Both the position numbers and the translations under genes were made by a program. DNA of 64,000 nt, from contig CM055905.1 in assembly GCA_029582155.1 (NCBI GenBank), positions 5,892,062 to 5,956,061 on the forward strand, in the 5' to 3' direction. The stretch is from Panopea generosa (Eukaryota > Mollusca > Bivalvia > Adapedonta > Hiatellidae). The notes beneath the pieces are model-generated. The model made no database searches. It was not told the origin of the DNA and worked only from the letters and a program-made list of their open reading frames with translations. Shown piece by piece: positions 34,153-60,347 of this stretch; position 1 is the first letter of the stretch, and every line of letters begins with the position of its first letter.

Positions 34153-34283
34153 TTAATAGTAAAGTGGAAAACATTTCCCGTCTTTAGCTTGATATCCAGG
34201 GTAACAAGTACATTCGTAGCTGCCAAGTAAATTTGTACAGAATGAATAATACTGACAGGGCTTGTCCTTACATTCATCGATAT
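34153..34283 (-). CDS. Last exon of EGF-repeat gene: one EGF module then stop
   Basis: The acceptor TATTTTCAG precedes 34283. With the phase-1 codon completed by the upstream exon, the product starts D-I-D-E-C, with six cysteines at residues 5, 10, 16, 25, 27 and 38, and the hydroxylation pattern C-T-N-L-L-G-S-Y-E-C-T-C. This is a calcium-binding EGF domain, normally extracellular. Unlike all other exons in the set there is no GT donor after the sixth cysteine. The frame instead runs F-P-L-Y-Y to a TAA at 34153-34155, so I read it as the terminal exon. A donor lost by mutation in an internal exon is the alternative. The spacing between cysteines 1 and 2 is shorter than in the other exons, so it is the most diverged member. 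Confidence 0.7.
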
Positions 34284-34320
34284 CTGAAAATAGATATAAA
34301 TGATGGTCAACTATTACCTT

Positions 34321-34365
34321 TCGTCATTTTATGCCATCAAGGACTAACAGACCATCAGTTAAACT
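34321..34365 (-). mobile_element. SINE family A 3' fragment
   Basis: CGTCATTTTATGCCATCAAG and GACTAACAGACCATCAGTTA match the 3' body of the copy at 35554-35812. Confidence 0.6.
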
Positions 34366-35062
34366 TTTGTATGCTAAGACTTTCGTATAGTTAAGAGGGC
34401 TCCTCACCCCGAGGTTGTATCACGGTTTTTCTCACAATTTACAGGATTCATTTCAAATACAATGTTTGCATATAAGCCTATTTTACACCACTCCTAGTTT
34501 CTTATTTGGGCGAAGCCCCGGAAATATTGGGATTTTTTAAGGTTTGTCGAGTATACAGATAGAAACCCAATAAAAGTTGGGGGGGGGGGGGTTTGGCGTT
34601 CTTGGTATATTGCACCGTCACACGGGCCATTTGAACGACTTTGTATTTCTAGTTTGTCAGCCCCGGGAATCGAACTATCAACCTCGAGACTAGAAGTATC
34701 GTGTCCTGCCGATAGAGTTAATGGTTCTGGTTTTGAAAACCTGGCTTGGCTTCAAATTTGGCAGTTTTAGTGCTTATTTGAGGTAGAAAAATACATGTGT
34801 ATCTGAATCTTTTATTGAAATGATTCCGCTTTTGAGTTGACAATGAAACAGAGCTTCATAACTTCGACATATCTCGGTTATGAGGTTGTTATCCTGCAGT
34901 TGATGTTGTTCAATTGTTGTATGGTGTTTAGATTTCAACACTTTTTCAGTTATATCGCGACGGTGTCTACTTGAGAAAGTATTGTGAGCGCTGTCACACT
35001 GCAGTTTCATGCTGAAGACAAATGGTATGATACCCCGCTCAATCACGTTATAATGACACTGG
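34366..35062. other. Intron; one tRNA-like remnant at 34653-34722
   Basis: On the minus strand GATAGTTCGATTCCCGGGGC resembles box B, and ACTCTATCGGCAGGACACGA a decayed box A. A G(10) run is at 34581-34590. A 90-codon minus-strand frame (34774-35046) has no motif and no splice framing. Confidence 0.4.
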
Positions 35063-35217
35063 GCCGACCATATCTAGAACTATACCCTAAATGCTAGGTG
35101 CCAATCGCTGGAGCTTTTAGTACCATTTATAAGCTTTGGTATGACCTGATCGTGGTTTGAACATTCCGCATGTGAGGCGGACGCTCTACCACTAGACCAC
35201 CGTTGAGGTCCTAAAAA
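35063..35217 (-). mobile_element. tRNA-derived SINE, family C
   Basis: Minus-strand head GGTGGTCTAGTGGTAGAGCG (box A), CCTCACATGCGGAA anticodon region and a GTTCAAACCACG box B variant. The body GGCACCTAGCATTTAGGGTA matches copies at 38584-38745 and 41129-41295. Confidence 0.78.
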
Positions 35218-35309
35218 ATGTGAACACCAATGTTTTTCAATTGTCAGTGGGTGAATAATACAGTGATTGTCACTTTGATTATCACATTTTATTGTCATAT
35301 CTCAATGGC

Positions 35310-35420
35310 ACAGTGAACTAATGCAATAACTGCTCACAGTCGAAGTGTTGGATTCGATCCTAGTATTGTCAACAATATTTATCTATGAAAGTTTGCCAGT
35401 TATTTGTCATATGCGGTGGG
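35310..35420 (+). mobile_element. SINE family E fragment
   Basis: GTGTTGGATTCGATCCTAGT is a box B-like segment, followed by ATGAAAGTTTGCCAGTTATT, the family E body. Confidence 0.5.
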
Positions 35421-35477
35421 CAAATGAATTATACATTAGTTCTGTAAATACGCTGTTTCCATATATTGATTAAGATT

Positions 35478-35957
35478 TAAAGTATTTATTTTACATCGAT
35501 TGCGAAGGAAGTCGTACAATTTGAACATATAACCCTCGAAGTCCTTCTTGGTAGATTGATTGATTGAATATTTAGCGTCATTTTTATGCCATCGAGGACT
35601 AACAGACCATTAGTTAAACTAACCACTGAAAGGTTAACAAGTACTCGAGCGTATCCCATTTCCACTAGTAACTGATAAATTTCCAACTTGAACCAGTCGT
35701 GAGAGATAAATGATAATGAGACGCAATATCGTATATCAATCATCACGGAGACTGTTGCCGAGCGGAAATTCGAACTCACGACCCACGGATAAATAAACAG
35801 ACGCTAAGCAGGCCTGGCTTTTCTGGGTACAAACAGTACAAAGCATTTGTGGTTAAAGTGTCTTGCCCAAGGACAATACACATAGCCGTGACGGAGGATA
35901 GAACCCGCGACTCTCCAATCCTGAGTCTGGTGCTCTGTCACTTGACCACGCGCCCCA
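35478..35957 (-). mobile_element. SINE family B split by an inserted family A SINE
   Basis: Positions 35815-35957 are the 5' half of a family B SINE on the minus strand (head GGCGCGTGGTCAAGTGACAG, box B GCGGGTTCTATCCTCCGTCA). Positions 35478-35553 are its 3' half (CCTCGAAGTCCTTCTTGGTA). Between them lies a family A copy. Confidence 0.78.
35554..35812 (-). mobile_element. tRNA-derived SINE, family A, nested
   Basis: Full 3' end with a (AATC)n tail (35554-35568). The body includes GCCATCGAGGACTAACAGAC and GAGACGCAATATCGTATATC; the head region is TCGTGAGTTCGAATTTCCGC. Same strand as the host SINE. It must be younger than that host. Confidence 0.82.
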
Positions 35958-36624
35958 AACTTTGATTAAACATACGTATAAAACAAAGTATAGTTGATGT
36001 TTTTTTTATTTCAGTTATTGGCCCATTAAGGACGATTTCTAGCACCAACATCGGCACAAAGGTAGGCGATTTGTAGAAACCTGCCAGAGTCGCTACATAG
36101 CGCTACACTACAACAGATCCTTTTCTGGACGGCACAATCATTTACGGATACTCCAAAAATCGGTCTTTTATATTGTGTTCAATTTAATGAAATATACATA
36201 CTGGCATAAAATAACTGTTTATAACAATTTAATCTGAACATGAAATATAATAGAGACCTAAATATTCAACAAATATATGCACAATTAATATAAAAACTGT
36301 AATTTTGCAACTCCAGTTTATTTAACGATGGCAATGCCGAATTGATTTAGTTCTTAAAATCCCTCATTAGTTAAATTCAAGCTTATAATTACCATTTCCA
36401 TGAAAATTTATATCATATGCATGCATATATTTAAAGTTTTAAATAAATACAAGATGCAAAATATTTTTTTCCATTGCTTGTTTTATCTACATTTTTTTCA
36501 AGGACGGGTATGTTTATGAGGAAGTAAATCCAAACAAATCTGTACGGTAAATTGTGTTTTTTTTTCTCATATTGCATGAACTAATATTAAATTTAAATAC
36601 TGAGAAGTTTAATTAAATTATATC
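35958..36624. other. Intron, nothing recognised
   Basis: AT-rich sequence between the last exon region and the 2.55 kb duplication. Confidence 0.4.
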
Positions 36625-36696
36625 CAGGAAAAATGTGACAACAAATATAGCAATAGTTTTTAAGATGTGAATAGCATTAAGTTTTCTTGTCATTAC

Positions 36697-36819
36697 CTGT
36701 ACATATTTCACCATTCCCGGTGTATCCATCTTTACACGTGCATCTATAGGACCCAACAGTGTTAGTGCAGTAGGCAGCGTGGTCGTCACATTTGTTATGA
36801 CCATTGCATTCGTCAATAT
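36697..36819 (-). CDS. EGF-repeat gene exon: one calcium-binding EGF module
   Basis: 123 bp, acceptor AAATTTCAG, donor ACAG|GTAATG, phase 1 at both ends. Product D-I-D-E-C-N-G..., cysteines at 5, 11, 18, 27, 29 and 40. It has the Asn-hydroxylation pattern C-T-N-T-V-G-S-Y-R-C-T-C and a G-Y-T-G-N-G end. Known role of such modules: rigid, calcium-stabilised rods in extracellular matrix or cell-surface proteins. It is the paralogue of 39264-39386 (second duplication unit), with which it shares the last half almost base for base. The full protein is not identifiable from modules alone; fibrillin-, fibulin- or Notch-like proteins all use them. Confidence 0.88.
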
Positions 36820-38583
36820 CTGAAATTTTATTTAATTCTATATGTGTGTTCAATCCGTATTGACTGGACGATGCTTAAAGAATCTGTCTCATATAGTAGA
36901 AATTGTTTGATCTTTCCCAGGCTTCTTCATTCGAACAAATAAATTCCTATACTATAAAGAAAGGATAAAGAAGCGCCGTTGACTTATAGAGCCACAATGA
37001 CCAAATTATTGTAAGTAATATTAGCATATGCATATTTTAATCATTATTGTTAACCAAACAAAACATTAACGAAATATCTTTACACAAGAATGCAGATTTG
37101 TTTCTGTTTCATCGTATCCGATATATTTTTCGACATGTCAACACATTGGAGTTGTGTGCTTTATTATATATTGGTAATATTCGAATGACCTGGCACATGG
37201 GATAATGTAAAAGAACCGTTAAATGAATATGGCTTTTTTGTCTTCCTTTAAATGTTTGAATGGCATAAAAACACAGAAATCTAATTCAAAAATGAATTAT
37301 ACTTCGTTGAATAACGTGTAATGTTTCTAAGCTAGTAATATATCGATACATCTTTAAATTATTTCGATAAAACGATAGTCAACGATGTTTCCCTTTATCG
37401 TGGAATAAAGTCAATTTTCTGGGCTAGGTACGGATGACCCGTCAACATTCCGGCTGCAGAAAAAGGCAAATATGGTGTGTCTAATGATGTTTAATAAACT
37501 AATATCAATTATTATAAATTGCCCATCGAATATTTATTGACAAACTATATGGAAAAATGCCTTTATTTAGGTCTTAAGTTAAATATTTTCGGCGTATTTT
37601 ACTCGACAGGCAAATTAAAGTGCATGTACATTATTTGTAAATTATCATGGTTTTAACCATAATTGTTTAAATGGTTCTGGTTGGCTGTACCTATAACAAT
37701 GAAAATAATATAAAAAATATAAGATGTTATTGTTTATATTTGCTCGATACAAAGGACATTTATTTGTTTAAAATAATTATAGCGATTTTTCCGGTGTGAT
37801 TTATTTCCCGCACGCTGTAAGAGTTAGACAATACTTATCTCCCTTCAAATAACTTATTTTTTAGCTGTAGTAATTAGACAATATTTCTCTCTCTTTAAAT
37901 AACGTATTTTTTATCTTTAGTATTTAGACAATATTTCTATTTCTTTTAAAAACATTTTTACTCATTTATTTTAGAAATAGCACACTGTCACTTTGTTTAC
38001 ACTGTCAGACAAATGCTTGATGTAAGCAAGATTTGATTGATTTTAATTATTCTAGAGAGGATTTCAGTCTTAATTTAGAATATATCAGATTAACATTATG
38101 TTTTTCTGGCAAAGATTGCACTGGATCAACGAATTACATATGTCCTTGAATGGATTGATTGAAAAGAATCAAAATATTCAATTGATGCTTCGGGAGAGTC
38201 CTGCCATCTTTTGTGGCGAACTGATGCTTAGCATCACGCTATTCTTGTCGGTCTACTGTTATTTTGTTTAGAAGTCGAACTAGATCCCAGGTCCAGGTTT
38301 AACATGGATTTAGCACAAATATGGACATTGTATTTTGGTGCACTTAAAACGTTATTAAGATGTGCGATCGAGATTTATACAGTTAATCGTATGAAAGTTG
38401 TATTTGTCTGAAATGCATGTTCACCATAAAGGACTTATTTTTCATCTCTTTTTTCGATAAACTTTTTGTTTAAAGACACTACGATCTGAATGTATGGAGA
38501 TTTTATTTATTGCACATTAAACTTTTTAAAATTACCTAATATGATATACACACTAGAAGTAGAACACTTCGTAGTTTAAGAAC

Positions 38584-38745
38584 CCCAGTGGTGGTGTAGG
38601 GGTGAGCGTCCACCTCGCATACGGAAGGTCATGGGTTCGATCCCCGGCTGGGTAATACCAAAGACTAAAAATTGGTACTAAAGTCTCCCTCGTTTGGCGC
38701 TCAGCATTTAGGGGATAGCTTTAGACCAGTGCGTGCACAATATGT
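38584..38745 (+). mobile_element. tRNA-derived SINE, family C (unit 1)
   Basis: GGTGGTGTAGGGGTGAGCGT (box A) and CATGGGTTCGATCCCCGGCT (box B), then CTCAGCATTTAGGGGATAGC and ACCAGTGCGTGCACA. The 5' and 3' edges (CCCAG, CTGGGT) still suggest an acceptor stem, but the sequence continues as a SINE body. In an intron, antisense to the EGF gene. Confidence 0.83.
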
Positions 38746-38956
38746 AATAAAGTTTAGTGATGTAAAAATACGTTATATTTATTTAAAATAAACCTTACTT
38801 ATAAATCTGGATATAAGGTTTAGCAATAAACTTTTGTTTGTTGTTAGAATCGACACTTTATCAAGTTACATACTTCTTAAATATTTTAAATACATATAAT
38901 ATATTGTATCAATTTTAGCTTCGCATAAAAATAGATCCATGCTATTTCCAAAATTA

Positions 38957-39130
<174 letters not shown>

Positions 39131-39263
39131 TTAACGGAGTGTCACTATCCTTAACACGTTATTTGTGATATAGTTCTTTGTCAAATTCTATTTAGGAAAA
39201 TGTTACAACAAATATAGCAATCGTTTTTAAGATGTAAATAGCATTAAGATTTCTTGTCATTAC

Positions 39264-39386
39264 CTGTACATATTTTACCATTCCCGGTGTATCCATCTTT
39301 ACACGTGCATCTATAGGACCCAACAGTGTTAGTGCAGTTGGCGGCATCGTCGTCACATTCGTTATCACCCTTGCATTCGTCAATAT
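39264..39386 (-). CDS. EGF-repeat gene exon: one calcium-binding EGF module
   Basis: 123 bp, acceptor AATTTTCAG, donor ACAG|GTAATG, phase 1-1. Product D-I-D-E-C-K-G-D-N-E-C-D-D-D, cysteines at 5, 11, 18, 27, 29 and 40. C-T-N-T-V-G-S-Y-R-C-T-C and G-Y-T-G-N-G are as in its paralogue at 36697. The first half differs more (Asn-Gly-His versus Lys-Gly-Asp), and the second half is almost unchanged. That pattern fits either selection on the calcium/core half or gene conversion. Confidence 0.88.
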
Positions 39387-41128
39387 CTGAAAATTTTAAT
39401 TTAATTTTATATGTGTGTTCAATCCGTATTGACTGGACGATGCTTAAAGAATCTGTCTCATATAGTAGAAATTGTTTGATCTTTCCCAGGCTTCTTCATT
39501 CGAATAAATAAATTCCTATACTATAAAGAAATGACAAAGAGACGCCGTTTGACTTACAGAGCCACAATGACCAAACTTTTGTAATTGATATTAGCATATG
39601 CAAATACAATCATTATTATTAACAAAACAAAAACTTTAACGAAATATCTTTACACAAGAATGCAGATTTGTTTTTTGTTTCATCGTATCCGATATATTTT
39701 TGACATGTCAACACATTGGAGTTGTGTGCTTTATTATATATTGGTCATATTCGAATGACATGGCACATGGGATAATGTAAAGGACCGATAATTGAATATG
39801 GCTTTTTTGTCTTCCTTTAAATGTTTAAATGGCATAAAAACACAGTTATCTAGTTAAAAAATGAGTTATGTTTCGTTTAATTACGTGTAATAAGCTAGTA
39901 ATATATAGATACATCTTTAAATTATTTTGATAAAACGATAGTCAACGATGTTTCCCTTTATCGTGGAATTAGGTCAATTTCCGGGAATGATACTAAAACC
40001 TGGGCTAGGTACGGATGACCCGTCAACATTCCGGCTGCAGAAAAAGGCAAATATGGTGTGTCTAATGATGTTTAATAAACTAATATCAATTATTATAAAT
40101 TGCCTATCGAATATTTATTGACAAATTATATGGAGAAATGCCTTTATTTAGGTCTTGAAGTTAAAAATTTTCGGCGTATTTTACTAATTCCATCAAGTGT
40201 GACAGGCAAATTATAGTACTTGTACATCATTTGTAAATTTTCATGGTTTTAACCATAATTGTTTCAATGGTTCTGGTTGGCTGTACCTATAACAATGAAA
40301 ATAATATAAAAATATAAGCTCTAATTGTTTATATTTGCTCGATACAAAGGACATATATTTGTTTTTTAAAAACATAGCGATTTTGCTGATATGATTTATT
40401 TCCCACACGCTGTAAGAGTTAGACAATATCTATCTCTGTTCAAATAACGTATTTTTAGCTGTAGTTATTAGACAATATTTCTCTCTCTTTAAATAACGTA
40501 TTTTTTAGCTTTAGTAATAGGACAATATTTCTATTTCTTTGAATAACATTTTTACTCATTTATTTTAGAAATAGCGTAGTCACCTTGTTTACACTGTCAG
40601 ACATATGCTTGATGTAAGCAATATTTGATTGGTTTTAATTATTCAAGAGAGGATTTCAGTCTACCTATAGAATATATCAGATTAACAGTATGTTGTCTGG
40701 CAGAGATTACACTGGATCAACGAATTACATATGTCCTTGAATGGATTGATTGAAAAGAATCAAACTATTCAATTGATGCTTCGGGAGAGTCCTGCCATCT
40801 TTTGTGGCGAACAGATGCTTAGCATCACGCTTTTCTTGTCGGTCTACTGTTATTTTGTTTAGAAGTCGAACTAGATCCCAGGTCCAGGTTTAACATGGAT
40901 TTAGCACAAATATGGACATATTATTTTGGTGCACTTAAAACGTTATTAAAATGCGCGATCGAGATTTATACAGTTTATCGTATAAAAGCTGTATTTGTCT
41001 GAAATGCATGTTTACCATGAACGATTTATATTTCATTTCTTTTTTCGATAAACTTTTTGTTTAAAGACTTTATGATCTGAATGTATGGAGATTTTATTTA
41101 TTGCACCTTAAACTTGTTACTATTACCT

Positions 41129-41295
41129 ACAGTGAAGGGGTGAGCGTCCGCCTCGCATGCGGAAGGTCATGGGTTCGATCTCCGGCTGGGTCATACCAAA
41201 TACTTAAAAAAAGTACTACAAACTTCCTCGTTTGCCACTCAGCATTTAGGGGATAGTTCTGGACCAGTGCGTGTACAGTATGTTGTAAAGTTACG
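41129..41295 (+). mobile_element. tRNA-derived SINE, family C (unit 2)
   Basis: GGGGTGAGCGTCCGCCTCGC and CATGGGTTCGATCTCCGGCT. Same position in the duplicon as 38584-38745, so it was duplicated with its surroundings, not inserted anew. Confidence 0.83.
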
Positions 41296-41525
41296 TTATA
41301 TTAGTTATATTTATTTCAAATAAACCTATATCATAAATCTGGCTATAAGGTATAGCAATAAACGTGTGTTAAAAAAACTGTTTCGCTTGTTGTTAGAATC
41401 GACATTTTATCAAGATAAATATTTAAATATTTTAAATATATATAATATATTATATCAATTTTAGCTTCGCAAATAAAAAGGGCCATGCTATTTCCAAAAT
41501 TAAAACAACATATCAAAATGCACTC

Positions 41526-41634
41526 CTGTACAGTCGTTCCCGTCCTCAGTGGACACAATTGTACGACCCCTAAGTATTTACACATATCGCGTTCGTGCCG
41601 CAATTATGTTTACAGTCATAGCAACCATCAATAT
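41526..41634 (-). pseudogene. Dead EGF exon of the EGF-repeat gene
   Basis: Aligns base for base with the live exon 38980-39102 but carries four separate lesions. The calcium-binding D-E-C is D-G-C. An in-frame TAG replaces the Lys codon after V-N-T. A 14-bp deletion removes the segment around the fifth cysteine and shifts the frame. The donor is ACAG|GAGTGC instead of GT. The length is 109 rather than 123 bp. The acceptor is still an AG (TTTTAAG). With no donor and a frameshift it must be skipped; because neighbouring exons are phase 1-1, skipping keeps the frame. Confidence 0.92.
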
Positions 41635-41776
41635 CTTAAAATGACATTAAATTAGAATGACATTAACGGAGTGTCACTATCCTTAACACGTTATTTGTGA
41701 TATAGTTCTTTGTCAGAATCATTATATGAATAATTCATACAGAACTTGTTTGAGAATCAACTGTTACATCTTAGAT

Positions 41777-41897
41777 TATTTTGATACTAGTTATAGAGGC
41801 ATATTTTGATAGTCATAGTGGCGTATTTTGATAATTATTGAGGCATATTTTGATAGTCATAGTGCCGTTTTTTGATAGTTATAGAGACGTATTATGA
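41777..41897 (-). repeat. 22-bp minisatellite, first segment
   Basis: Units of about 22 bp, TAGTGGCGTATTTTGATAGT plus CA, diverged. Separated from the main array by a SINE. Confidence 0.9.
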
Positions 41898-42065
41898 GTA
41901 AGTTTATACTAATTTATTTTAGCTCGAATGCGACAAAAGCTTGGAGCTTATATAAACCGCTTTAGAGTCCGCTTCCTAAGTAGAGGCATCGGTCGAGCTG
42001 GGTACGAACCTGCAACCTCTGGCGGGAGTGCCTAACACTCTATCCATTACACTACCGCCCAAGCT
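41898..42065 (-). mobile_element. tRNA-derived SINE, family D, inside the minisatellite
   Basis: Minus-strand head GGCGGTAGTGTAATGGATAG (box A), AGGTTGCAGGTTCGTACCCA (box B), then CTCTACTTAGGAAGCGGACT and GTCGCATTCGAGCTAAAATA. It interrupts the 22-bp array, so it inserted after the array formed. Confidence 0.82.
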
Positions 42066-43841
42066 TATGACATTTACAGTGGCGTATTTTTATAATCAAA
42101 GTGGCGTATTTTGATTGCAATACTTGTATATTTTGATAGTTATATGTCGTATTTTGATAATTATAATGGCGTATTTTGATATAGTAGCGTATTTTAATTG
42201 TAATAAAGGCGTATTTTGATAGTTATAGCGAAGTAGTGTAACAGTCATAGTGTCGTATTTTGAAAGTTATATAAGCGTATTTTGATAGGCATGGTGGCGT
42301 ATTTTGATAGTCACAGTGGCATATTTTGAAAGTCATAGTGACGTATTTTGATAGTAATAGCGGAGTAGTTTAATAGTCATAGTGGCGTATTTTGATATTT
42401 ATAACGGAATAGTTTACTAATCATAGTGGCGTATTTGGAAAGTTATATAGGCGTATTTAGATAGGCATAGTGGCGTTGTTTATAATCATAGTGGCGTATT
42501 TTGAAGGTTATAAAGGCGTATTTCGATAGGCATAGTGGCGTTATTTATAGTCAAATTGGCGTATTTTGATTGTAATACTGCTATATTTTGATAATTATAG
42601 GTCGTATTTTGATAATTGTAGTGGCGTATTTTGATAAAGTAGCGTATTTTGATTGTAATTAAGGCGTATTTTGATAGTTATAGCTGAGTAGTTTAATAGT
42701 CATAGTGGCGTATTTTGAAAGTTATATAGGCGTATTTTGATAGACATTCTGGCGTATTTTTGTAGTTATATTGACGTATTATGATAGTTTTAATGGAATA
42801 ATTTAATATTCGTAGTGGCGTATTTTGATAGTTATAACGGAATAGTTTAATAGTCATAGTGGCGTATTTTGAAAGTTATATAGACGTATTTTGAAAGGCA
42901 TAGTGGCGTTATTTATAGTAATACTGACGTATTTTATTAGTTATAGTGGCGTATTTTGATAGTCATATTGGCGTATTTTGAAAGTTACATAGGAGTATTT
43001 TGATAGCCATAGTGGCGTAATTTTGTAGCTAAAGTGACGTTTTTTATTAATTATAGTGGCGTATTTTGATAGTCATAGTAACGTATTTGGATAACCATAG
43101 TGGCGTATTTTCATATATACAGTGACGTATTTTATTACTTATAGTGACGTATTTTGATAGCCATAGTGGCGTGTTTTTGTGGTTATAGTGGCGTATTTTA
43201 TTAGCTATAGTGGCGTAATTTGATAGTCATAGTGGTGTTTTTTGAAAGTTTTATAAGCGATTTCTTTAGTCAAAATAGTGGCGTATTTTGATAGTCATAG
43301 TGGCGTATTTTTTTTTAGTTATAGTGGCCTATTTTACTACTTACAGGGACGTATTATGATAGTCATAGTGGCGTATTTAGATAATCATAGTGGCATATTT
43401 AAATAATCATAGTGCCGTATTTTCATAGATACAGTGGCATATTTTATTAATAATAGTGGCGTATTTTGATAGTCAAAGTGGCATATTTAGATCATCATAG
43501 TGGGGTATTTTCATAGTTATATTGACGTATTTTATTACTGACAGTTGCGTATTTTATTACTTTTATAGGTGTATTTTTGTAATTAAAGTGAGGTATTTTG
43601 ATAGTGATAGCGGAGTAGTTTAAGTAGTTATAGTTGCGTATTTTGAAAGTTATATAGACGTATTATGATAGTCATAATGGCATAATTTTGTAGTTCTAGT
43701 GGCGTATCTTATTAATTGTAGTGGCATATTTTAATAGTCAAAGTAACGTATTTTATTAGTTATAGTGGCGTATTAAGATAATCATAGTGGTGTATTTCCA
43801 TAGATACAGTGACGTATTTTGATAGTCATAGTGGTGTATTT
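42066..43841 (-). repeat. 22-bp minisatellite, main array
   Basis: About 80 units of GTGGCGTATTTTGATAGTCATA, with variants in which GTGGCG becomes GTGACG, GTAGCG or AAGGCG. It lies in the long intron between the two EGF exon clusters. No spacers differ systematically, so it is not a CRISPR-type array. Confidence 0.95.
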
Positions 43842-45599
43842 AAGTTACAGAAGCATACACAGACATTTTTAAACATTATTGACTGTTTTATAACTTTATC
43901 ATTGTTAAAGATGATTGCAATAGTTTTTGTCACATATAATACTAATATTCATGGAAATGGTATAAATCAGCTTGAATTTAACTGTTTAACGGTTTTAAAA
44001 ACAAAATCATTTCGGCAGAGTGTCAATTGTTTTTCAATTTTGTAATAAAAATATAGCATTTTTTTTAATATTTTGATATACTGTACGGATAAATTTTTGT
44101 TAATATCTCACAAATTACTCTCTGATAACTATTTTAATTGTCATTAAAATAAAAAAAAAAAAACACTTTACGGCGTAATTTAAGAATAAATTAGCTCTAA
44201 AATCATGGCATGGTTAAATAAAATACAGTTGCAAGATTAACGTTTTTATACTTATTGAGCATACTTGTATAAATGTTAAGATTTCTATTATATTTCATAG
44301 TCTGGTTAAATTGCTATCAACAATACTTTTATACCAGTATGCATATTTCATTGAACACAATAGAAGAGACCAATTTAGGCGTATCAGTAAATATTTGTGT
44401 CATCCGAAATAGTGTCAGTTGTAGTATGTCGTGACTCTTGCAGGTCTCGACAAAATTGCTTCCCTTTGTGCGCTGAGTTGGTGCGCATGAAAAACTATAG
44501 CAATCGTCCTTAATTATAATTTGGTATTGTATTTTATACGAAAATAAATCAAGATAAATAATAATAAAATATTTCACTATACTAGATGAATTTTATTGCA
44601 CTGGCAAATGTTGTGGTAAAAACCTGTAATGGACGCCGCTGCGGCGTTTCGTCCAATACAGCTTTTTGTGGATTTTAACTTGCGTGGATTTCGAATGTAA
44701 GTGAAGCAATTCATGGAATACATGACTTTCTGACGTAACGTAACGCCATGTCGATAAAAGTACGAATATTAAAAAGTTGATTTGTCCAAAGACTGGCTTT
44801 ACATGCTTAAGAAGAGAAAAAAGTTTGAAAGAATTGATGGTTGTCGAATCAACTTCACGATAACAAAAACAGAAATTATAAAAAGGCAACTAATCATATA
44901 CCTTATGATACTCATCAGTTACACGTGCACTGTAATCATATATATGTATTATATTAAACAAAAATCGTCACACACTATTTGCAGACAAACAATCACTAAC
45001 GTGGATATCAACCGATATCATTATAATTATACAGCACATTTAATTTGACATATGGCAGCGACAGTGATATCAAAGTCGTATATCGATCGTCGATTCCATA
45101 ACACTATATCGCTATCAAATTATTGTTCTATTTAATATATATCGTGATAGATGAAAGACCCAATAACGTGGTACCGGTTGATGATTTAAGAGTTAAAAGG
45201 GCAAAGACAGCAAGTTTTATTCACAAAAGTTGTTAAACAGTAATGTCTATTGGATTCAATGTTACGTTCCTTAACTTATCCCGCTGAAACAATTCATAGC
45301 CTTCCCTTTGTATTCATTGTTATATTCACATGTGTAAACCGCGAGATTATTTATATGATTGGTGTAACCATAGCAACTATATGTTTTCTATTAATTATTC
45401 ACTATTTACATGCTGATATATGACATATTAATATCGTACGTTCTCTAATGCAAACATTCAAAAAAATAAATACTTCATCCGAGTTATGAAAAGTATATTG
45501 TATACAAAATAATATAAGTTAACATCAATTGTAAAACATAAAAATTGATGAAGTATCTAATATAATGGTGTATTGCCAATTGCTGTTTTCTTGGTTTCT
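43842..45599. other. Intron, no exon recognised
   Basis: Includes an A-run at 44149-44162 and a GC-rich hairpin at 44632-44656 (GACGCCGCTGCGGCGT). No EGF exon or known repeat found. Confidence 0.45.
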
Positions 45600-45685
45600 T
45601 TTTTCAGTTAAACAAATAAAAATTAAAAAGTTAGTATTTACACAAACCGCGATGCTATGTGTGTTTTCGTAACATTCATCAATGT
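45600..45685 (-). pseudogene. Decayed EGF exon remnant
   Basis: The minus strand encodes I-D-E-C-Y-E-N-T-H-S, then A-V-C-V-N-T-N, the start of an EGF module. The second cysteine region is deleted, and the sequence departs from EGF after V-N-T-N. No AG precedes the expected phase-1 start, and no cysteines 4 to 6 follow. It shares the same abrupt break (after ACTAAC) and 5' flank with 50633-50697, so both descend from one truncated ancestor. Confidence 0.7.
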
Positions 45686-49149: not shown

Positions 49150-49272
49150 CTGTACATTCCTGCCCGTTCCCTAAGTATCCCTGGTTACAGACACAAGTGA
49201 AACTCCCAATAGTATTCGTGCATGTGGCGTCTGCGTGGCAATTATGTTTACCCTCATTGCATTCATCAGCAT
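49150..49272 (-). CDS. EGF-repeat gene exon, type A (D-A-D-E-C)
   Basis: 123 bp, acceptor AATTTTTCAG, donor ACAG|GTGAGA, phase 1-1. Cysteines at 5, 12, 18, 27, 29 and 40. C-T-N-T-I-G-S-F-T-C-V-C matches the Asp/Asn hydroxylase consensus, then N-Q-G-Y-L-G-N-G-Q-E-C. One base from the exon at 60225, 11 kb away. Followed in the gene by decayed remnant 45600 and then the 39 kb cluster. Confidence 0.9.
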
Positions 49273-49599
49273 CTGAAAAATTTCAATAAAGTTTATACAG
49301 TATTGTGTATGCGGTTCAATGTTACGTTCCTTAGCTAGCTTATCGCGCTGAAACCATTCCTAGCCTCACCTTACTATTCATTTTTATATTCACATGTGTA
49401 AGTCGCTAGATATAATTTATTGTTTGCCTTTTCAACATCAAAAACCAACAAATATATAATAAAAGGACATGTCTAACACATGATAATGGTTTTATATAAG
49501 TGTGCAACATAATTCTTTCATATAATGTAGCTACGGTAATAAAATCTTATAAAACAAAATATTTGAAAGAACGGATGCAATTTATTTCATAAAATAGTA

Positions 49600-50290: not shown

Positions 50291-50632
50291 CTAGGCAAGT
50301 ATCTAAGTACAATAACATATGTATTACAAAATGATAAATAGTAGAGCACTCGGCTCATTAAGGCTATAAGTATAATAATATGAATATAATAAATGAACGT
50401 TTATTGGATATGAAATTATATAAAACAATAAGGACTTATACAGATACGGAAAGGCAACTGATCGGCATTTTATGAACAAACGCGTATTCACGCAAAATCG
50501 CGCGAAATTACTTCGTTTTCAAATATCCAAAGCACCATATTTCTTACGGCTAAAATTTACAAATTGAACATTAACTATCAAAGTTCTCACCTTTACTTAC
50601 TCTTTCAATTAAACGAATAAAATCTAAACAAG

Positions 50633-50697
50633 TTAGTAATTCAAACGAATCGCGTTGTTATCACAGTTATGTGTGTTTTTGTTACATTCATCAATAT
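50633..50697 (-). pseudogene. Truncated EGF exon remnant
   Basis: After an AG acceptor the minus strand reads I-D-E-C-N-K-N-T-H-N-C-D-N-N-A-I. Arg then stands where the third cysteine belongs, and the frame ends at a TAA. No cysteines 4 to 6 and no donor. It occupies the position in the duplicon where a type A exon would be (its flank at 50375-50600 is the type A flank). Confidence 0.8.
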
Positions 50698-51254: not shown

Positions 51255-51377
51255 CAATACAAGTTGTCCCATCCCCAAAGTATCCTTTGTTACATTGACA
51301 TGTGAAAGAGCCAACAGTATTTGTACACATAGCATTGTTATCACAATTATCACTCCCGTTGGCGCATTCATCAGTGT
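51255..51377 (-). CDS. EGF-repeat gene exon, type B, non-canonical acceptor
   Basis: Exactly 123 bp between the expected boundaries. Donor ATTG|GTGAGA is good. The acceptor is ACATTTTCTG, i.e. TG where AG is required. Product D-T-D-E-C-A-N-G-S-D-N-C, cysteines at 5, 12, 18, 27, 29 and 40, C-T-N-T-V-G-S-F-T-C-Q-C, G-Y-F-G-D-G. No AG lies in the preceding 35 bases, and the nearest one upstream would put the module out of frame. Either a rare TG acceptor is used, or the exon is skipped although its coding sequence is intact. Confidence 0.6.
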
Positions 51378-52154: not shown

Positions 52155-52277
52155 CTGTACATTCCTGCCCGTTCCCTAAGTATCCCTGGTTACAGACACA
52201 AGTGAAACTCCCAATAGTATTCGTGCATGTGGCGTCTGCGTGGCAATTATGTGTACCCTCATTGCATTCATTAGCAT
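52155..52277 (-). CDS. EGF-repeat gene exon, type A (D-A-N-E-C)
   Basis: 123 bp, acceptor AATATTTTAG, donor ACAG|GTAAGA, phase 1-1. Cysteines at 5, 12, 18, 27, 29 and 40; N-E-G-T-H-N-C variant. Asn replaces Asp at position 3, still allowed in the calcium consensus. The last 80 or so bases are identical to exons 49150, 55555 and 60225. Confidence 0.9.
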
Positions 52278-53488
52278 CTAAAATATTTTGATAAAGTTTT
52301 AAAACATTATTGTCTATTGGATTCAATGTTACGTTCCTTTGCTTATTCCGATGAAACCATTCCTAGCCTCACCTTGGTATTCATTTTTATATTCTCATGT
52401 GTAAGTCGCGAGATTAGTTATATAATTTATTGTTTGCCTTTTTAACATCATAAACAAACAGATATATAATAAAAGGACATGTCTAACACATGATAATTGT
52501 TTAATAACGTAAGTCTTTCATATAATGTAGCTACGATAATAAAATATCATAAAACAATTTATACTTGAAAGAACGGATGCAATTTATTTCATAAAATAGT
52601 ATCGCGACTTACTATCAACACAGGGGTCGCGAGTTCGAATCCCCGCGCGGTCTAAGGCTCCGTGATGAGTGATATATATCTTTAAAATGTATAATTGAAA
52701 TGTTAAAGAGCTCTGATACATTTGTTAAAGGTATACTAGAATCCCAAATGAATAGAACCTGTAACAAAGGCTTATAGCTTAATGTAGTCGTATGTCGATT
52801 TTTTGCGACTGATAAATGTAGGCTTGTAATACAAAAAAATAACCATACTCCAATATTGCAGCACGTAAAATATTGTAACAAACAGTTATTTCATGGACAC
52901 AACTGCTAAATTGTTAAAAATGACGCAAAACGTTCAGCACAATATTTCAAATCAGATGGTTATATCAAATCTTATAAAAGTCAATATATTAGGATTTTTC
53001 ACAATTTTAGAATACGCAATAAAAAGTCCAATATAGCATGCCGATATATATTCAAGGAACCCGTATTGCAGATTTTTATTTAAACATGCCAAAGCATATA
53101 TTGAAAAGCCTTTCCTAACTTGGGATACGGGCCTAGGTTGAAAAATGGCAACATATTTTGATTTCAATTTGATCCGTTATACAGGTTCACAAACGTATCT
53201 GCAAACGTAGTAAAAATTGTTTTATCTTAGAAAGTCAGAATGACAATGCGAAGCTCGTCAAGCAGTATGTTAGTGTTGTCTAGTTTCGTTTCAAGATTAC
53301 AGTTCCAATTTAAATACCAATATGCCAAAATTTGGTGGATTTGACATACCAAACCATTGACATTTTATTTATTAATGATAATGAGATGTTCTTTTTCATT
53401 TTAATAATTAGTTTATTTCTTGTGTTAAATTTATTCTTTGTTTTTTTGCAAAGCAAAAAGGTTACAGCATATAATGTGGAAATATTTA
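52278..53488 (-). repeat. Type A exon 5' flank duplicon with tRNA-like fragment G
   Basis: TTGGATTCAATGTTACGTTC, AAAAGGACATGTCTAACACA and the tRNA-like GTCGCGAGTTCGAATCCCCG (52596-52662) recur at 49273-50000 and 57357-58090. Positions 52785-53280 are inserted unique sequence that interrupts the shared block (GAACCTGTAACAAAGGCTT, then CGTTTCAAGATTACAG). Confidence 0.75.
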
Positions 53489-54880: not shown

Positions 54881-55554
54881 AGTCCTATAGGAAATTTGAT
54901 TCGCCTTTCACTGTTCCTGTGTCACAGCACCGGAAACGTCTCTAAATAGGACTTTCGCCTACGTTCGACCTGTTTCAATTCTCAGTGGAAGAATACCACA
55001 CATGTAAATATGAATATCCAGTAATATGAAAAATAACATAATAGAAGAATATCTATTGATGAACCAGCTCAATTACTCAATATATTTACTAATTATAGAA
55101 CTTTGGACTTAAATAGATTTTTAACTTTCATTTTCAGTGATTTGCCTTTTTGAATTCCGGGCAAGTTATGAAAACTGAGATTTGCAATTGGTTATGAAAT
55201 AAAAAGAAGGCATACAGGAACACGTTACGTTCAACAGCCGTGTATTTTACTGTTCTGTTAATAAACTTTAACATAAGTATTCAAGGTAATATTTCTATTG
55301 GTGAAAGATAACAGAAGACGGGCGATAATTGGGAAGGCAATAATATTATGAATAAAATAAATGAACGTTCATTGGATATGAATTGATATATAACAATAAG
55401 GACGTATACAGATAAGGAAACTCAACTGATTGACATGTTGTGACACTCGCGTATTCACGCAAAATCGTGCGAAATCTCGTTTTCCAATATCCAAAGCACC
55501 ATATATGTTACGGCTAAAATTTGCAAATTTTACATTAACTATGATTGTTCTGAC

Positions 55555-55677
55555 CTGTACATTCCTGCCCGTTCCCTAAGTATCCCTGGTTACAGACACA
55601 AGTGAAACTCCCAATAGTATTCGTGCATGTGGCGTCTGCATGACAATTATGTTTACTCTCATTGCATTCATCAGAAT
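55555..55677 (-). CDS. EGF-repeat gene exon, type A (D-S-D-E-C, N-E-S)
   Basis: 123 bp, acceptor GAAATTTTCAG, donor ACAG|GTCAGA, phase 1-1. Cysteines at 5, 12, 18, 27, 29 and 40, N-E-S-K-H-N-C. Three bases from exon 60225; two of these (TGT CAT for TGC CAC) are silent. The donor has C at +3, weaker than A or G, and it is shared with 60225. Confidence 0.88.
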
Positions 55678-55842
55678 CTGAAAATTTCACTAAAGTTTAT
55701 AAACAATATTATATATTGGGTTCAATGTTGCGTTCCTTAGCTTATCATGCTGAAACCATTCTTAGCCTCCCCTTGGTATTCATTTTAGTATTCACATGTG
55801 TAAGTCGCAAGATTAGTTATATAATTAATAGTTTGCCTGTGA

Positions 55843-56400
55843 GTAGTCATGAATCCTTAACTGGATCCTACTCACATAAATCTATCAGTTCATGTATATA
55901 AATTTGTCTACCCTGTCCAGATGGGTTGCATGTAATTCCATAGTATATAAGTCATGGTCGACACCAAATTTATTGGTTTGGCAGAAGCCTTGATATTGTA
56001 TCTATGTTTTGCATTGTAGCTAGGTGCACTCGCTGTAGTCTTGTATGTACATTTATGTCTTGGTTATTGACAAATAATTATCTCCCTATATATAATTTGT
56101 CCTTTATTATGCATGTGAGTAGTCATGCATCCTTAACTGGATCCTACTCATATAAAGCTATCAATTCATGTATGTAAATTTGTCCACCCTGTCCAGATAT
56201 GAAGCATGTAATTCCATAGTATATAAGTCATGGTCGACACCAATTTATTGGTTTGGCAGAAGCCTTGGTATCGTATATATCGATTGCATTGTAGCTAGGC
56301 ACTCTCGCAGTAGTCTGGTCTGTACATTTATGTTTTGGTTATTCAAAAACAATTATCTCCATATATTTATTATGCATTATGAATGAACATCTGAAAAGAT
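55843..56400 (+). repeat. Module P, two tandem units of about 270 bp
   Basis: Each unit begins GTGAGTAGTCATG and carries CCTTAACTGGATCCTACTCA, TGGTCGACACCAA and TTGCATTGTAGCTAGG. Confidence 0.85.
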
Positions 56401-56464
56401 CCCAAACATCGTAAATTCCGTTGTTGTGAATTTAATTATCTCCCTTTATATATATAATACTAAA

Positions 56465-56565
56465 GAGTAGTTTTCATCCCAACATCAGTGATATATTAGT
56501 AAATAGCAGTTTGTATCACGACATCAGGGATATATTAGTAAATAGCAGTTTGTATCACGACATAT
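56465..56565 (+). repeat. Module S, copy 2
   Basis: Two units of GATATATTAGTAAATAGCAG. Confidence 0.8.
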
Positions 56566-56644
56566 ATAAGACAAAAGCTGATTAAAGTGAACAGTGTTAA
56601 CACGATTACATCTTAGAACATTATTAGACCGGTATCTGTTTTCA

Positions 56645-56930
56645 TGATGAATACATCTTGTTGATTTGTATATATTGTATAATTGTAAATTCATAATTTT
56701 ATTTTGTGTAATAGTCATATTCTACCTTGGTGAGTTGTCGGCCATTGGTCATTTTGTTACTTAACACAATAACTCAGATCAAAATGATAAAATGAATGCC
56801 GTTATTTTAAACCTTATACTGCCCCGCCCAACCAAACATATTCTTAAGGCCCACTGACGCTTCAGTCTAGGTCATCCTTATCATTGGAAGCAATTAGCAT
56901 TTCTTGATGTATTTAGTTTATAAGTAAGTA
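56645..56930 (-). repeat. Module T, copy 3
   Basis: GTGAGTTGTCGGCCATTGGT variant. The minus-strand reading becomes S-N-K-M-T-N-G-R-Q-L. Confidence 0.75.
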
Positions 56931-57004
56931 AGTTTCAAAGAAAATAATTTATTATAGTGACATATGCATGACAGTACAATAATAACTGTATTACATAATG
57001 ATAA

Positions 57005-57200
57005 ATAAGAGAGCACTCGGCCCATTGGGGCTATAAGTACACTGCCAATGAATAAAAGTAATATGCAATTTCATATGATAATAAACAATGGAACAAATAT
57101 TGAATACTGTAGGTAAACTTTCAAAAGTACAAATGTAGATATGGTGATTAAATAGTAGTGTACATAGTGTTTCCTTTACAGATATGCCTTTGTCAAAATT
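57005..57200 (-). repeat. Module Q, copy 3, truncated at exon boundary
   Basis: Stops at TTTGTCAAAA (57191-57200), where the type A exon flank (TTTGCAAATTAAACATTTACTA) begins. This is a junction created by a deletion or recombination. Confidence 0.7.
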
Positions 57201-57233
57201 TGCAAATTAAACATTTACTACTAATGTTCTCAC

Positions 57234-57356
57234 CTGTACATTCCTGCCCGTTCCCTAAGTATCCCTGGTTACAAACACAGGTGAAACTCCCAATAGTATT
57301 CGTGCATGTGGCGTCTGCGTGGCAATTATGTGTACCCTCATTGCATTCATAAGCAT
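57234..57356 (-). CDS. EGF-repeat gene exon, type A (D-A-Y-E-C)
   Basis: 123 bp, acceptor AATTTTTCAG, donor ACAG|GTGAGA, phase 1-1. Cysteines at 5, 12, 18, 27, 29 and 40. Position 3, normally the calcium-ligand Asp/Asn, is Tyr, so calcium binding by this module is probably weakened. D1, E4 and N20 remain. It is the most diverged A copy in the second half (ACC and GTT instead of ACT and GTC, both silent). Confidence 0.88.
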
Positions 57357-58090
57357 CTGAAAAATTTCAATAAAGTTTATAAACAGTATTGTCTATTGGA
57401 TTCAATGTTACGTTCCTTTGCTTATTCCGATGAAACCATTCCTAGCCTCACCTTGGTATTCATTTTTATATTCACATGGGTAAGTCTCGAGATTGGTTAT
57501 ATAATTTATTGTTTGCCTTTCTTACATCATAAACCAACAAATATATAATATATAATAAAATAACCTGTCATACACATGATGATGATTTTATATTAGTTTG
57601 CAATATAATTTTTTCATATAATGTAGCTACGGTAATAAAATCTTATAAAACAAAATATTTGAAAGAAGGATGCAATTTATTTAATAAAATAGTAGCGCGT
57701 CTTACTATCAACACAGGGGTCGCAAGTTCTAATCCATGCGCGGTCAAAGGCTCCGTGATGAGTGATATATATCTTTAAAATGTATAACGGAAAAGTTAAA
57801 GAGCCCTGATACATTTGTTTAACGGTATACTCGAATCCCAAATGAATAGAACCTGTAACAAAGGCTTCGTTTCAAGATTATAGCTGCAATTCACATACCG
57901 ATTTGCCTCAATTTGGTGCATTTGACATATCAAACCATTCGCATTTTATTTATTAATGATAATGAGATGTTCTTATTCATTTTAATAATCAGTTTCTTTC
58001 TTGTGTTAAATTTATTTTATGTTTTTTGCTTAACAATTTGTCCAGCGATATTTATTTTGTATAACGTGGAAATATTAAGAGTGGTATATA
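57357..58090 (-). repeat. Type A exon 5' flank duplicon
   Basis: Same order as 49273-50000 and 52278-52770, including the tRNA-like fragment at 57692-57760 with a decayed box B (GTCGCAAGTTCTAATCCATG). Confidence 0.75.
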
Positions 58091-58094
58091 TTTT

Positions 58095-58290
58095 CATGTT
58101 GGGTAAATCTTGTTGATTTGTATATATTGTACAATTGTAAATTCATAATTTTATTTTATGTAGTAGTCATACTCTAATTTAGTGAGTTGTCGGCCCTTGG
58201 TCATTTTGTTACCTAACACAAGGCCCACTGACGCTTCAGTTTAAATCATACTTATCATTGGAAGCAATTAGTATTTCTTCATACGTTTAG
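58095..58290 (-). repeat. Module T, copy 4, internally deleted
   Basis: GTGAGTTGTCGGCCCTTGGT, then a jump from CCTAACACA to AGGCCCACTGACGCTT. Confidence 0.75.
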
Positions 58291-58440
58291 TTTTAGCCAT
58301 CTTCAAAATGGACAAAATTAATATAATTTCCAATTGAAGAAATTTTATCATAACACTTTTAAGTTAGTGTATCAGTTCATAACATTTCCAAATGTTTACA
58401 CTATTTCAAGCATTTTAGACTATAGCTGAGCTTATCTGTA
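58291..58440 (-). repeat. Module K, copy 3, partial
   Basis: AAATGGACAAAATTAATATA, TATCAGTTCATAACATTTCC and ACACTATTTCAAGC. Here no truncated exon accompanies it. Confidence 0.7.
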
Positions 58441-58589
58441 AGAACACACACTAACGTTTAAGTCGAATCCGTAACTATATGTGGAAGCAATTAGTAATCT
58501 TGATCAATAGAGTATCAGATTAAATTTGAAAAAGGGAACGTTGCAGTTAACTTATATGCTAACTAGTATGTTGAACACAACCAACTCTC

Positions 58590-58765
58590 CCGCTTGGTTC
58601 CATTACAAAGCTATGAGATTTGAGCATGTTAATTGGTCAGTTACTTCAGTGAAAGCTGAATGACGTCACAGTTTTGTTAGCGTTTAATAGTTATAATTAT
58701 AGGACAATCAAATATTTCCTTGATGTTTTATTTCATTAGTGTTGAACAAACTTAATTCGGGAAAT
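58590..58765 (-). mobile_element. Element E beside second B exon, left copy
   Basis: GAGCATGTTAATTGGTCAGT and TGAATGACGTCACAG. Same placement as 51040-51225. Confidence 0.7.
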
Positions 58766-58795
58766 ATCATGGATTATGATAGACTATATTCTCAC

Positions 58796-58918
58796 CAATA
58801 CAAGTTGTCCCATCCCCAAAGTATCCTTTGTTACATTGACATGTGAAAGTGCCAACAGTATTTGTACACATAGCATTGTCATCACAATTATCACTCCCGT
58901 TGGCGCATTCATCAGTGT
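58796..58918 (-). CDS. EGF-repeat gene exon, type B, non-canonical acceptor
   Basis: 123 bp, donor ATTG|GTGAGA, acceptor ACATTTTCTG (TG, not AG), identical to the other B copy. Product D-T-D-E-C-A-N-G-S-D-N-C, cysteines at 5, 12, 18, 27, 29 and 40. It differs from 51255-51377 by N14D and S24T only. The frame is intact. Confidence 0.6.
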
Positions 58919-58999
58919 CAGAAAATGTAGACAACATGACATAACAGAAAAAACTTTGTTAGAATTATTGCTTTTTGAGGGACTCCAGCACAAGTTGTA

Positions 59000-59110
59000 G
59001 TTCGGACCCTGCTCTCCCAATTGGGTCCGTAAAATAGCAATGTTGGGAAAGCCATATTTGAGCACGTTGATTTGTTAATTGCTTCAACTGAAAGTTTGAA
59101 TGACGACATA
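59000..59110 (-). mobile_element. Element E beside second B exon, right copy, truncated
   Basis: GCTCTCCCAATTGGGTCCGT and GAGCACGTTGATTTG. Cut at 59107, where module T begins. Confidence 0.7.
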
Positions 59111-59320
59111 TAGTTACTGAACTGTCGGCCCTTGGTCATTTTGTTACCTAACACAATAACTAAGATCAAAATGATAAAATTAATGCCGTTATTTTAAACC
59201 TTTTACTGACCCGCCCAATCTAACATATTCTTAAGGCCCGCTGACGCTTCTGTCTTGGTCATAATTATCATTGGAAGCAATTAGTATTTCTTGATACATT
59301 TAGTTTAATTAGTAAGTAAG
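59107..59320 (-). repeat. Module T, copy 5
   Basis: ACTGTCGGCCCTTGGTCATT, CCCGCTGACGCTTC. Confidence 0.75.
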
Positions 59321-59392
59321 TATCTAAGTCAACAGTTTATTATAGTGACATGTGCATGACAGTACAATAATATATATATTATAAAATGATAA

Positions 59393-59670
59393 ATAGTATA
59401 TCACTCGGCCCATTGGGGCTATAAGTCACTGCCAATGAATAAAAGTAATATGCAATTTCATATGATAAAAAGCAATGGAACATAAATAGAATACTGTGGA
59501 ACACTTTCAAAAGTACAAATGTAGATATGGTGATAAAATAGTAGTGAACATAGAGTTTATACTATACAGATATGCGTTTGTCAAAACCTTTCCCACCTTT
59601 CTTTGACAATTGTTCATTAGATATTTCAGTTTATGTATAAATTCTAACATTGTATAGTCACTGGTTGCAT
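59393..59670 (-). repeat. Module Q, copy 4
   Basis: CACTCGGCCCATTGGGGCTA. The minus-strand reading A-T-S-D-Y-T-M-L-E-F-I-H is kept. Joined to the type A flank at about 59670. Confidence 0.65.
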
Positions 59671-60224
59671 GAACCTGCCCAATTACTCAATATATTTACT
59701 AATTATAGAACTTTGAAAATTCTGCAATAAAATTTGTATTTACAATTGTAACTTGCTTAGCGTAACTCCTTCATTGGACTTAAATAGATTTTTAACTTTC
59801 ATTTTCAGTGATCTGCCTTTTTGAATTCCGGGCAAGTTATGAAAACTGAGATTTGCAATTGGTTATGAAATAAAAAGAAGGCATACAGGAACACGTTACG
59901 TTCAACAGCCGTGTATTTTACTGTTCTGTTAATAAACTTTAACATAAGTATTCAAGGTATTATTTCTATCGGTGAAAGATAACGGAAGACGGGAGATAAT
60001 TGGGAAGGCAGTAATAATATGAATATAATAAATGAACGTTCATGGGACATGAATTTATATATAACAATAAGGACGTATACAGATAAGGAAACTCAACTGA
60101 TTGACATGTTGTGACACTCGCGTATTAACGCAAAATCGTTCGAAATCTCGTTTTCCAATATCCAAAGCACCATATTTGTTACGGCTAAAATTTGCAATTT
60201 AACATTAACTATGAATGTTCTGAC

Positions 60225-60347
60225 CTGTACATTCCTGCCCGTTCCCTAAGTATCCCTGGTTACAGACACAAGTGAAACTCCCAATAGTATTCGTGCATGT
60301 GGCGTCTGCGTGGCAATTATGTTTACCCTCATTGCATTCATCAGAAT
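60225..60347 (-). CDS. EGF-repeat gene exon, type A (D-S-D-E-C), most 5' in window
   Basis: 123 bp, acceptor AATTTTTCAG, donor ACAG|GTCAGA, phase 1-1. Cysteines at 5, 12, 18, 27, 29 and 40; C-T-N-T-I-G-S-F-T-C-V-C; N-Q-G-Y-L-G-N-G-Q-E-C. First exon of the gene visible here. No signal peptide or start codon is in the window, so further exons must lie at higher coordinates. Confidence 0.9.

What the first reader, a model, noticed from the sequence alone, without database searches (positions are those of the whole stretch)
34153..60347. Array of interchangeable 123-bp, phase 1-1 EGF exons growing by duplicon birth and death
Ten internal exons of identical length and phase, one terminal exon and three decayed exons all lie on one strand over 26 kb, embedded in a mosaic of shared modules. 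Symmetric exons allow any gain or loss without a frame change, so the protein's EGF count could vary between individuals. This looks like a locus that makes length variants of an extracellular protein by copying exon blocks.
Basis: partly seen in the sequence, partly recalled or inferred. Interest (0 to 1): 0.8.

Follow-up and report, generated by a model that had tools for sequence, protein, structure and literature searches.

The report
EGF exon array differing between copies
An animal gene carries a long string of interchangeable EGF-domain exons, and the genome assembly holds two versions of the gene, very likely the two parental copies, in which the string is built differently, so individuals probably make EGF proteins of different make-up.

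Summary
The window has ten 123-bp phase 1-1 EGF frames plus a terminal EGF exon on the minus strand. Eight of ten have AG/GT borders; two have a TG acceptor. Four decayed exons and five half-exon relics lie among them. EGF exons continue beyond the window, C12:5928758-6021619.

A second version lies about 300 kb away, 92.9-98.7% identical in the chained blocks. The versions meet at exactly 500 N; contig 2 is homologous to contig 1 from its first base, and contig 1 ends in a satellite that contig 2 also has. That is the usual mark of unmerged alleles. They hold 26 and 25 splice-ready exons of different make-up (A14 C9 B0 against A18 C1 B3); 15 of 26 and 16 of 25 pair colinearly.

Best reading: a secreted calcium-binding EGF chain whose domain make-up is set by haplotype through unequal exchange of multi-exon units, as in human LPA KIV-2. 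A real tandem duplication is not excluded. Joint splicing and function are untested.

The parts
34153..34282 (-). terminal exon: last EGF domain, then stop codon; no transmembrane segment follows
   Evidence: EGF_CA E=1.6e-9
36697..36819 (-). D-type EGF exon, 123 bp, phase 1-1, AG/GT
38980..39102 (-). E-type EGF exon, 123 bp, AG/GT
39264..39386 (-). D-type EGF exon, 123 bp, AG/GT; D+E unit tandemly duplicated (36615-39183 against 39183-41715, 87%)
41526..41634 (-). decayed E-type exon: two stops in the frame read, 109 nt, donor lost (GA); decayed likewise in the other version
45288..45388 (-). decayed EGF exon
   Evidence: E=6e-5; its own sequence was in that model
45597..45685 (-). decayed EGF exon (first half recognisable)
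   Evidence: E=1.2e-5
49150..49272 (-). A1-type EGF exon, AG/GT
49357..49410 (-). half-exon relic upstream of an A exon (similar relics at 52359-52421, 55757-55821, 57438-57494, 60428-60489)
   Evidence: E=0.0023; the others 2.7e-4 to 4.6e-6
50582..50697 (-). decayed EGF exon (DIDECNKNTHNC..)
   Evidence: E=9.1e-11
51255..51377 (-). B-type EGF frame with TG instead of AG acceptor: predicted skipped, or a rare GT-TG intron
52155..52277 (-). A2-type EGF exon, AG/GT
55555..55677 (-). A3-type EGF exon, AG/GT
57234..57356 (-). A1-type EGF exon, AG/GT
58796..58918 (-). B-type EGF frame with TG acceptor
60225..60347 (-). A3-type EGF exon, AG/GT; EGF exons continue beyond the window to C12:6021619

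Best explanation
It is about the 3' third of one large gene for an extracellular calcium-binding EGF-repeat protein. Its internal EGF exons are amplified as multi-exon genomic units: an A1-A3-A2/A3-B unit (successive A1 exons lie about 3-18 kb apart, from the coordinates) and a 1.41-kb C unit. The units are gained and lost by unequal exchange, and because each exon is 123 bp and phase 1-1, any gain or loss keeps the reading frame. The assembly holds both haplotypes of the sequenced animal end to end, and the haplotypes encode EGF chains of similar total length (26 and 25 splice-ready 123-bp exons) but different composition. Shown: the exons, splice dinucleotides, phases, unit structure and the difference between the two versions. 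Inferred: that the versions are alleles, that the exons join one mRNA, the exchange mechanism, and an extracellular structural or adhesive role.
For: 51 exons of both versions pass AG/GT, no stop, 123 bp, minus strand (selection criteria); all 51 also have six cysteines and the Asx-hydroxylation motif, which were not criteria. EGF_CA matches 8 of 9 exon types given; NELL2, ADGRE5, NEL, uromodulin and Notch lead the PDB hits, fibrillin is lower. The versions match at 96-99% in the flank pieces tested and at 97% or more in 11 of the first 13 blocks of the chain. They are joined at exactly 500 N; homology starts at the first base after the gap (5777995 with 5526229), and contig 1 ends in a satellite that contig 2 also holds. 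Composition differs. Exon types largely cluster by type across units and versions, with exceptions. Seven of eight intervals between the nine splice-ready C exons of R1 are 1406-1418 bp. A-type exons at 86% identity or more were listed only at this locus (150 of 1602 candidates scored).
Against: No RNA. The join is a gap, so a true tandem duplication is not excluded. On the left of the array the versions are not colinear: about 49 kb in R2 (5.793-5.842 Mb) stand where R1 has about 20 kb; probes L038 and L040 (600 bp each) found no counterpart in the listed rows, and L045 only an 85-bp piece at 92% and a 126-bp piece at 76%. The 5' part of the array is more diverged (93-96%) than the 3' part. 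Selection evidence is weak: unique changes in A exons are 19 nonsynonymous to 9 synonymous, no departure from neutral (p=0.34). Exon against flank difference in 15 matched pairs gives p=0.0006 with, and p=0.09 without, one misaligned flank. No N-terminal domain was recognised.
Confidence: 0.72

Rival explanations
1. The two versions are a real head-to-tail duplication of a 250-300 kb segment on one chromosome: two paralogous EGF-array genes that have diverged by about 1-7%, with no claim about variation between individuals.
For: Same strand and order, about 300 kb apart; a 20/49 kb segment without clear homology and 4-7% divergence in the 5' array are high for alleles.
Against: The join is exactly a 500-N scaffold gap, contig 1 ends in satellite, and homology starts at the first base of contig 2: expected of unmerged alleles, a coincidence for a real duplication.
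Confidence: 0.18
2. The exons are mostly non-functional debris of segmental duplication; the expressed gene uses only a few of them.
For: Four decayed exons, five half relics and two TG-acceptor exons in the window; no clear purifying selection.
Against: All 32 exons classed as A keep frame, splice dinucleotides and six cysteines (the class was assigned by a protein motif that includes a cysteine, so a badly decayed copy could have been missed). None of 28 unique A-exon changes removes a cysteine or makes a stop (p=0.016). In 76 non-independent pairs with homologous flanks synonymous change about equals intron change (1.08) and nonsynonymous change is 0.40 of it.
Confidence: 0.15
3. The difference between the versions is an assembly error: units collapsed or expanded inside each contig.
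For: Unit arrays are hard to assemble; read data were not available here.
Against: No N inside the compared stretches; A and C exon units differ from their closest relative in the same version by about 0.4-13%, apart from matches of overlapping neighbours; the differences include types and an inverted exon, not only counts.
Confidence: 0.12

Closest known systems
[quoted passage not shown]
   Same: Multi-kb genomic unit with exons of one extracellular disulfide-rich domain, tandemly repeated inside one gene; copy number differs between alleles and gives protein isoforms of different size.
   Different: Here EGF, not kringle; several exon types in mixed units, with decayed and inverted copies; the versions differ more in composition than in total. 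LPA size variation is measured in people; here it rests on one assembly.
Calcium-binding EGF repeat proteins (NELL2, ADGRE5, uromodulin, fibrillin, Notch)
   Same: EGF_CA modules with Asx-hydroxylation motif; these are among the PDB sequence matches of a seven-domain composite.
   Different: No other domain of those families was seen; ends after the last EGF with a stop codon, no transmembrane or ZP segment; exon copies differ between two versions.
Gene presence-absence variation in mussels (PMC7653742, PMC10138031: search listing with start of abstract)
   Same: Large structural differences between individuals or haplotypes in an invertebrate.
   Different: There whole genes vary; here exon units inside one gene. 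Whether this animal is a mollusc was not tested.

Membership tests
Calcium-binding EGF (EGF_CA) domain | match to PF07645 over its gathering score | tested here: met
   8 of 9 single exon types over the cut-off (A 50.0, B 46.9, C 51.9, D 44.4, E 46.9, terminal 38.2, two 5' types 41.7 and 46.3 bits against 27); the most 5' exon type had no match
Calcium-binding EGF (EGF_CA) domain | six cysteines and C-x-[DN]-x4-[FY]-x-C-x-C (motif recalled) | tested here: met
   51 of 51 splice-ready exons; 49 of 51 also fit the N-terminal D-x-[DNH]-[ED]-C pattern
Symmetric (phase 1-1) EGF exons | each internal exon one domain, phase 1 at both ends | tested here: met
   51 of 51 are 123 bp between AG and GT by selection; three 5' exons fit the same phase by inspection
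Coding exon-unit copy-number polymorphism (LPA KIV-2 type) | repeated genomic unit carrying whole exons inside one gene | tested here: met
   'one gene' rests on phase, strand and order only
Coding exon-unit copy-number polymorphism (LPA KIV-2 type) | copy number differs between alleles | tested here: inconclusive
   two versions differ; their allelism is very likely but unproven
Coding exon-unit copy-number polymorphism (LPA KIV-2 type) | protein isoforms of different size | not testable with these tools
   no RNA or protein data
Fibrillin, NELL or uromodulin orthologue | the non-EGF domains of those families | tested here: inconclusive
   open frames of about 33 kb upstream were read by eye and no non-EGF domain was recognised; that stretch was not scanned against Pfam (searches failed)

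The most novel reading that the evidence does not exclude
The locus is a standing generator of allelic diversity in an extracellular recognition protein: total chain length is held near constant (26 and 25 exons, only two versions seen) while haplotypes swap EGF types in blocks, and TG-acceptor B exons act as a reserve of optional domains.
Probability: 0.1. Interest if true: 0.8.

Novelty: new member of a known kind. Interest (0 to 1): 0.52.

Why it matters
If the two versions are alleles, one animal makes two EGF chains that differ in a large share of their modules. That would be a clear counterpart of LPA KIV-2 in another animal and another domain, and would make the birth, death and exchange of protein-domain exons directly measurable within a population. 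It is also a caution: an unmerged haplotype can look like a pair of tandem genes.

Tried and rejected
Chance resemblance: rejected. Exons spread as part of a genome-wide transposon: rejected; A-type matches at 86% identity or more were listed only at C12:5.64-6.01 Mb (150 of 1602 candidates scored), although pieces of the intervening DNA are genome-wide repeats. Purifying selection as proof of function: the pairwise ratios looked good (pN/pS 0.37 for A), but the count of unique changes did not support them for A (p=0.34) or B (p=0.32) and only weakly for C (p=0.039), and the exon-against-flank test fell from p=0.0006 to p=0.09 once a misaligned flank was taken out, so it is not used as proof. 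Constraint on TG-acceptor B exons: 5 nonsynonymous to 4 synonymous, cannot tell. N-terminal domain: open frames of 33 kb upstream were printed and read by eye only, nothing recognised. A second unmerged overlap elsewhere in the assembly as a control was not sought. No structure was predicted.

Of 17 short probes around the join, 6 found a counterpart in the other version (L032, L033, L034, L035, L041, L046; L034 is satellite). Eleven did not in the listed rows, and the listing was cut. For five of these (L042, L043, L044, L047, L048) none was expected if the contigs overlap as described. Of the other six (L036, L037, L038, L039, L040, L045), three were re-tested at 600 bp: L045 gave two short pieces, L040 and L038 no counterpart. 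L036, L037 and L039 were not re-tested.

Papers: nothing on an EGF exon array of this kind was seen in the listings; one search was for LPA, for TG acceptors, for unmerged haplotypes. No paper was opened.
Full report
WHERE IT IS. The window is C12:5892062-5956061 of a 1.47-Gb genome in 39 contigs.

CHECK OF THE OBSERVATION. On the minus strand the window has ten 123-bp frames, each coding one EGF domain, phase 1 at both ends, plus a last EGF exon that ends with TAA at 34153. Eight of the ten have AG/GT borders; the frames at 51255 and 58796 have TG where AG should be. A more sensitive scan finds four decayed exons and, just upstream of each of the five A-type exons, a weak relic of the second half of another EGF exon (E 0.0023 to 4.6e-6, not independent of each other). 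The D+E exon pair is itself a tandem duplication, 36615-39183 against 39183-41715 at 87%, and the second E has decayed. So birth and death are visible inside the window.

THE ARRAY IS LONGER THAN THE WINDOW. With neighbouring DNA fetched, 123-bp EGF exons run from 5928758 to about 6016132, the last splice-ready one at 6014752. Further EGF-like exons of the same phase, by inspection, lie at about 6017, 6021 and 6023 kb; the first two match EGF_CA, the third matched no Pfam family. A genome search with A, D and E domains lists the close matches (80% identity or more) only at C12:5.63-6.01 Mb. The next best by E-value is 48% identical on C10; single E-domain matches of 57-64% lie on C8 and C14 (150 of 1602 candidates scored).

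A SECOND VERSION. That search showed a second cluster at 5.63-5.68 Mb. Version R1 (5626062-5706061 fetched) and version R2 (5842062-6056061) form a colinear chain of 19 blocks at 92.9-98.7%; of the first 13 blocks (the 3' and central part) 11 are at 97% or more, the others being 96.5% and a 92.9% block that covers the 22-bp satellite. Flank pieces match at 96-99%. The two versions meet at 5777495-5777994, a run of exactly 500 N. The first base after the gap is homologous to 5526229, and the 2606 bases tested match at a displayed 100%. The last 3.4 kb before the gap are a satellite that R2 also has, at 6077226-6083537. This is what two unmerged allelic contigs look like. False duplications in assemblies are the subject of PMC9516828 (search listing and start of abstract only). 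Against a simple allelic picture, a segment of about 49 kb in R2 (5.793-5.842 Mb) stands where R1 has about 20 kb, and probes from it found little or no counterpart.

HOW THE VERSIONS DIFFER. Splice-ready exons (AG, GT, 123 bp, no stop, minus strand): R1 26 (A14, C9, D2, E1), R2 25 (A18, B3, C1, D2, E1). In one best colinear chain, which depends on my scoring, 15 of 26 R1 exons and 16 of 25 R2 exons have a partner; one R2 partner, the B exon at 6004965, faces a TG-acceptor copy in R1. In order, 5' to 3', R1 reads: x c C C x C C C x C C C C A1 b A1 A3 A2 b x A1 A3 A3 b A1 A3 A2 b x A1 A3 A2 b A1 e D E D. R2 reads: x c C c(inverted) c B B A1 B A1 A3 A3 A2 b A1 A3 A3 A2 b x A1 A3 b A1 A3 A3 b A1 A3 A2 b A1 x e D E D. 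Here b is B with a TG acceptor, lower-case c and e are copies not splice-ready, and x is a decayed or other exon; the first x in each string is a 5' EGF exon of a different length, not a decayed one. The strings hold what the first exon model found at E 1e-3 or better, so weaker decayed copies are not in them. In a tree of the 32 A exons with flanks, the A1, A2 and A3 types largely group by type across units and versions; exceptions are one A3 exon (5967721) beside A1, one A1-labelled pair (5684069, 6005809) beside A2, and A1 falling in several groups. This fits copying and loss of older multi-exon units. In R1 seven of eight intervals between the nine splice-ready C exons are 1406-1418 bp, the other is 569; R2 keeps one good C exon and an inverted one.

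FUNCTION. EGF_CA and EGF_3 match the array types A to E. All 51 splice-ready exons keep six cysteines and the hydroxylation motif. The closest solved sequences are EGF chains of NELL2, ADGRE5, NEL, uromodulin and Notch, with fibrillin lower. The last exon ends with a stop and no transmembrane segment, which suggests a secreted or matrix protein; signal peptide and N-terminus were not found. Constraint is modest: no lost cysteine or stop among 28 unique A-exon changes (p=0.016), but the nonsynonymous share is as expected without selection (p=0.34).

TG ACCEPTORS. Ten of 13 B exons, five in each version, have the same TG acceptor; the three with AG are at the 5' end of R2. TG acceptors were shown to work as alternative sites in 36 human genes (PMC2374985, search listing and start of abstract), so skipping is likely but not certain.

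MECHANISM. Most likely unequal exchange between units carrying near-identical exon-intron blocks; the phase 1-1, 123-bp exons make every gain or loss frame-neutral. The blocks contain pieces of genome-wide repeats, which could help pairing; this is inference.

VERDICT. It works like LPA KIV-2. Whether it is a member of that kind depends on proof of allelism and of joint splicing.

Noticed in passing
C12:5777495-5777994: A 500-N scaffold gap between two 250-300 kb near-identical segments: probably an unmerged haplotype, so genes between 5.53 and 6.08 Mb may be counted twice in annotation.
   Followed up: yes
C12:5793000-5842000 against 5540000-5560000: A segment of about 49 kb in one version and 20 kb in the other without clear homology between the parts probed, next to otherwise 98-99% identical DNA.
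   Followed up: partly
window 7888-11449: 51-bp satellite in direct and inverted blocks; also a perfect 342-bp tandem pair at 6880-7565.
   Followed up: no
window 42078-43841: 22-bp tandem repeat of about 80 copies between the D/E exons and the A exons; G exceeds C on the + strand here (skew 0.22 over 40001-44000).
   Followed up: no
window 49357-49410, 52359-52421, 55757-55821, 57438-57494, 60428-60489: Each A exon in the window has a weak relic of the second half of another EGF exon just upstream, which suggests that the ancestral unit carried two adjacent exons, as the D/E pair still does.
   Followed up: partly
C12:6007837-6008710: Fragments that look to me like a Tc1-type transposase (recognised by eye, no search) inside the array, in a stretch not paired with the other version in the chain.
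   Followed up: no
C12:6013026-6013148: A C-type EGF exon on the opposite strand, seen in R2 only, 39 bp from a truncated copy: probably an inversion that took an exon out of use.
   Followed up: no
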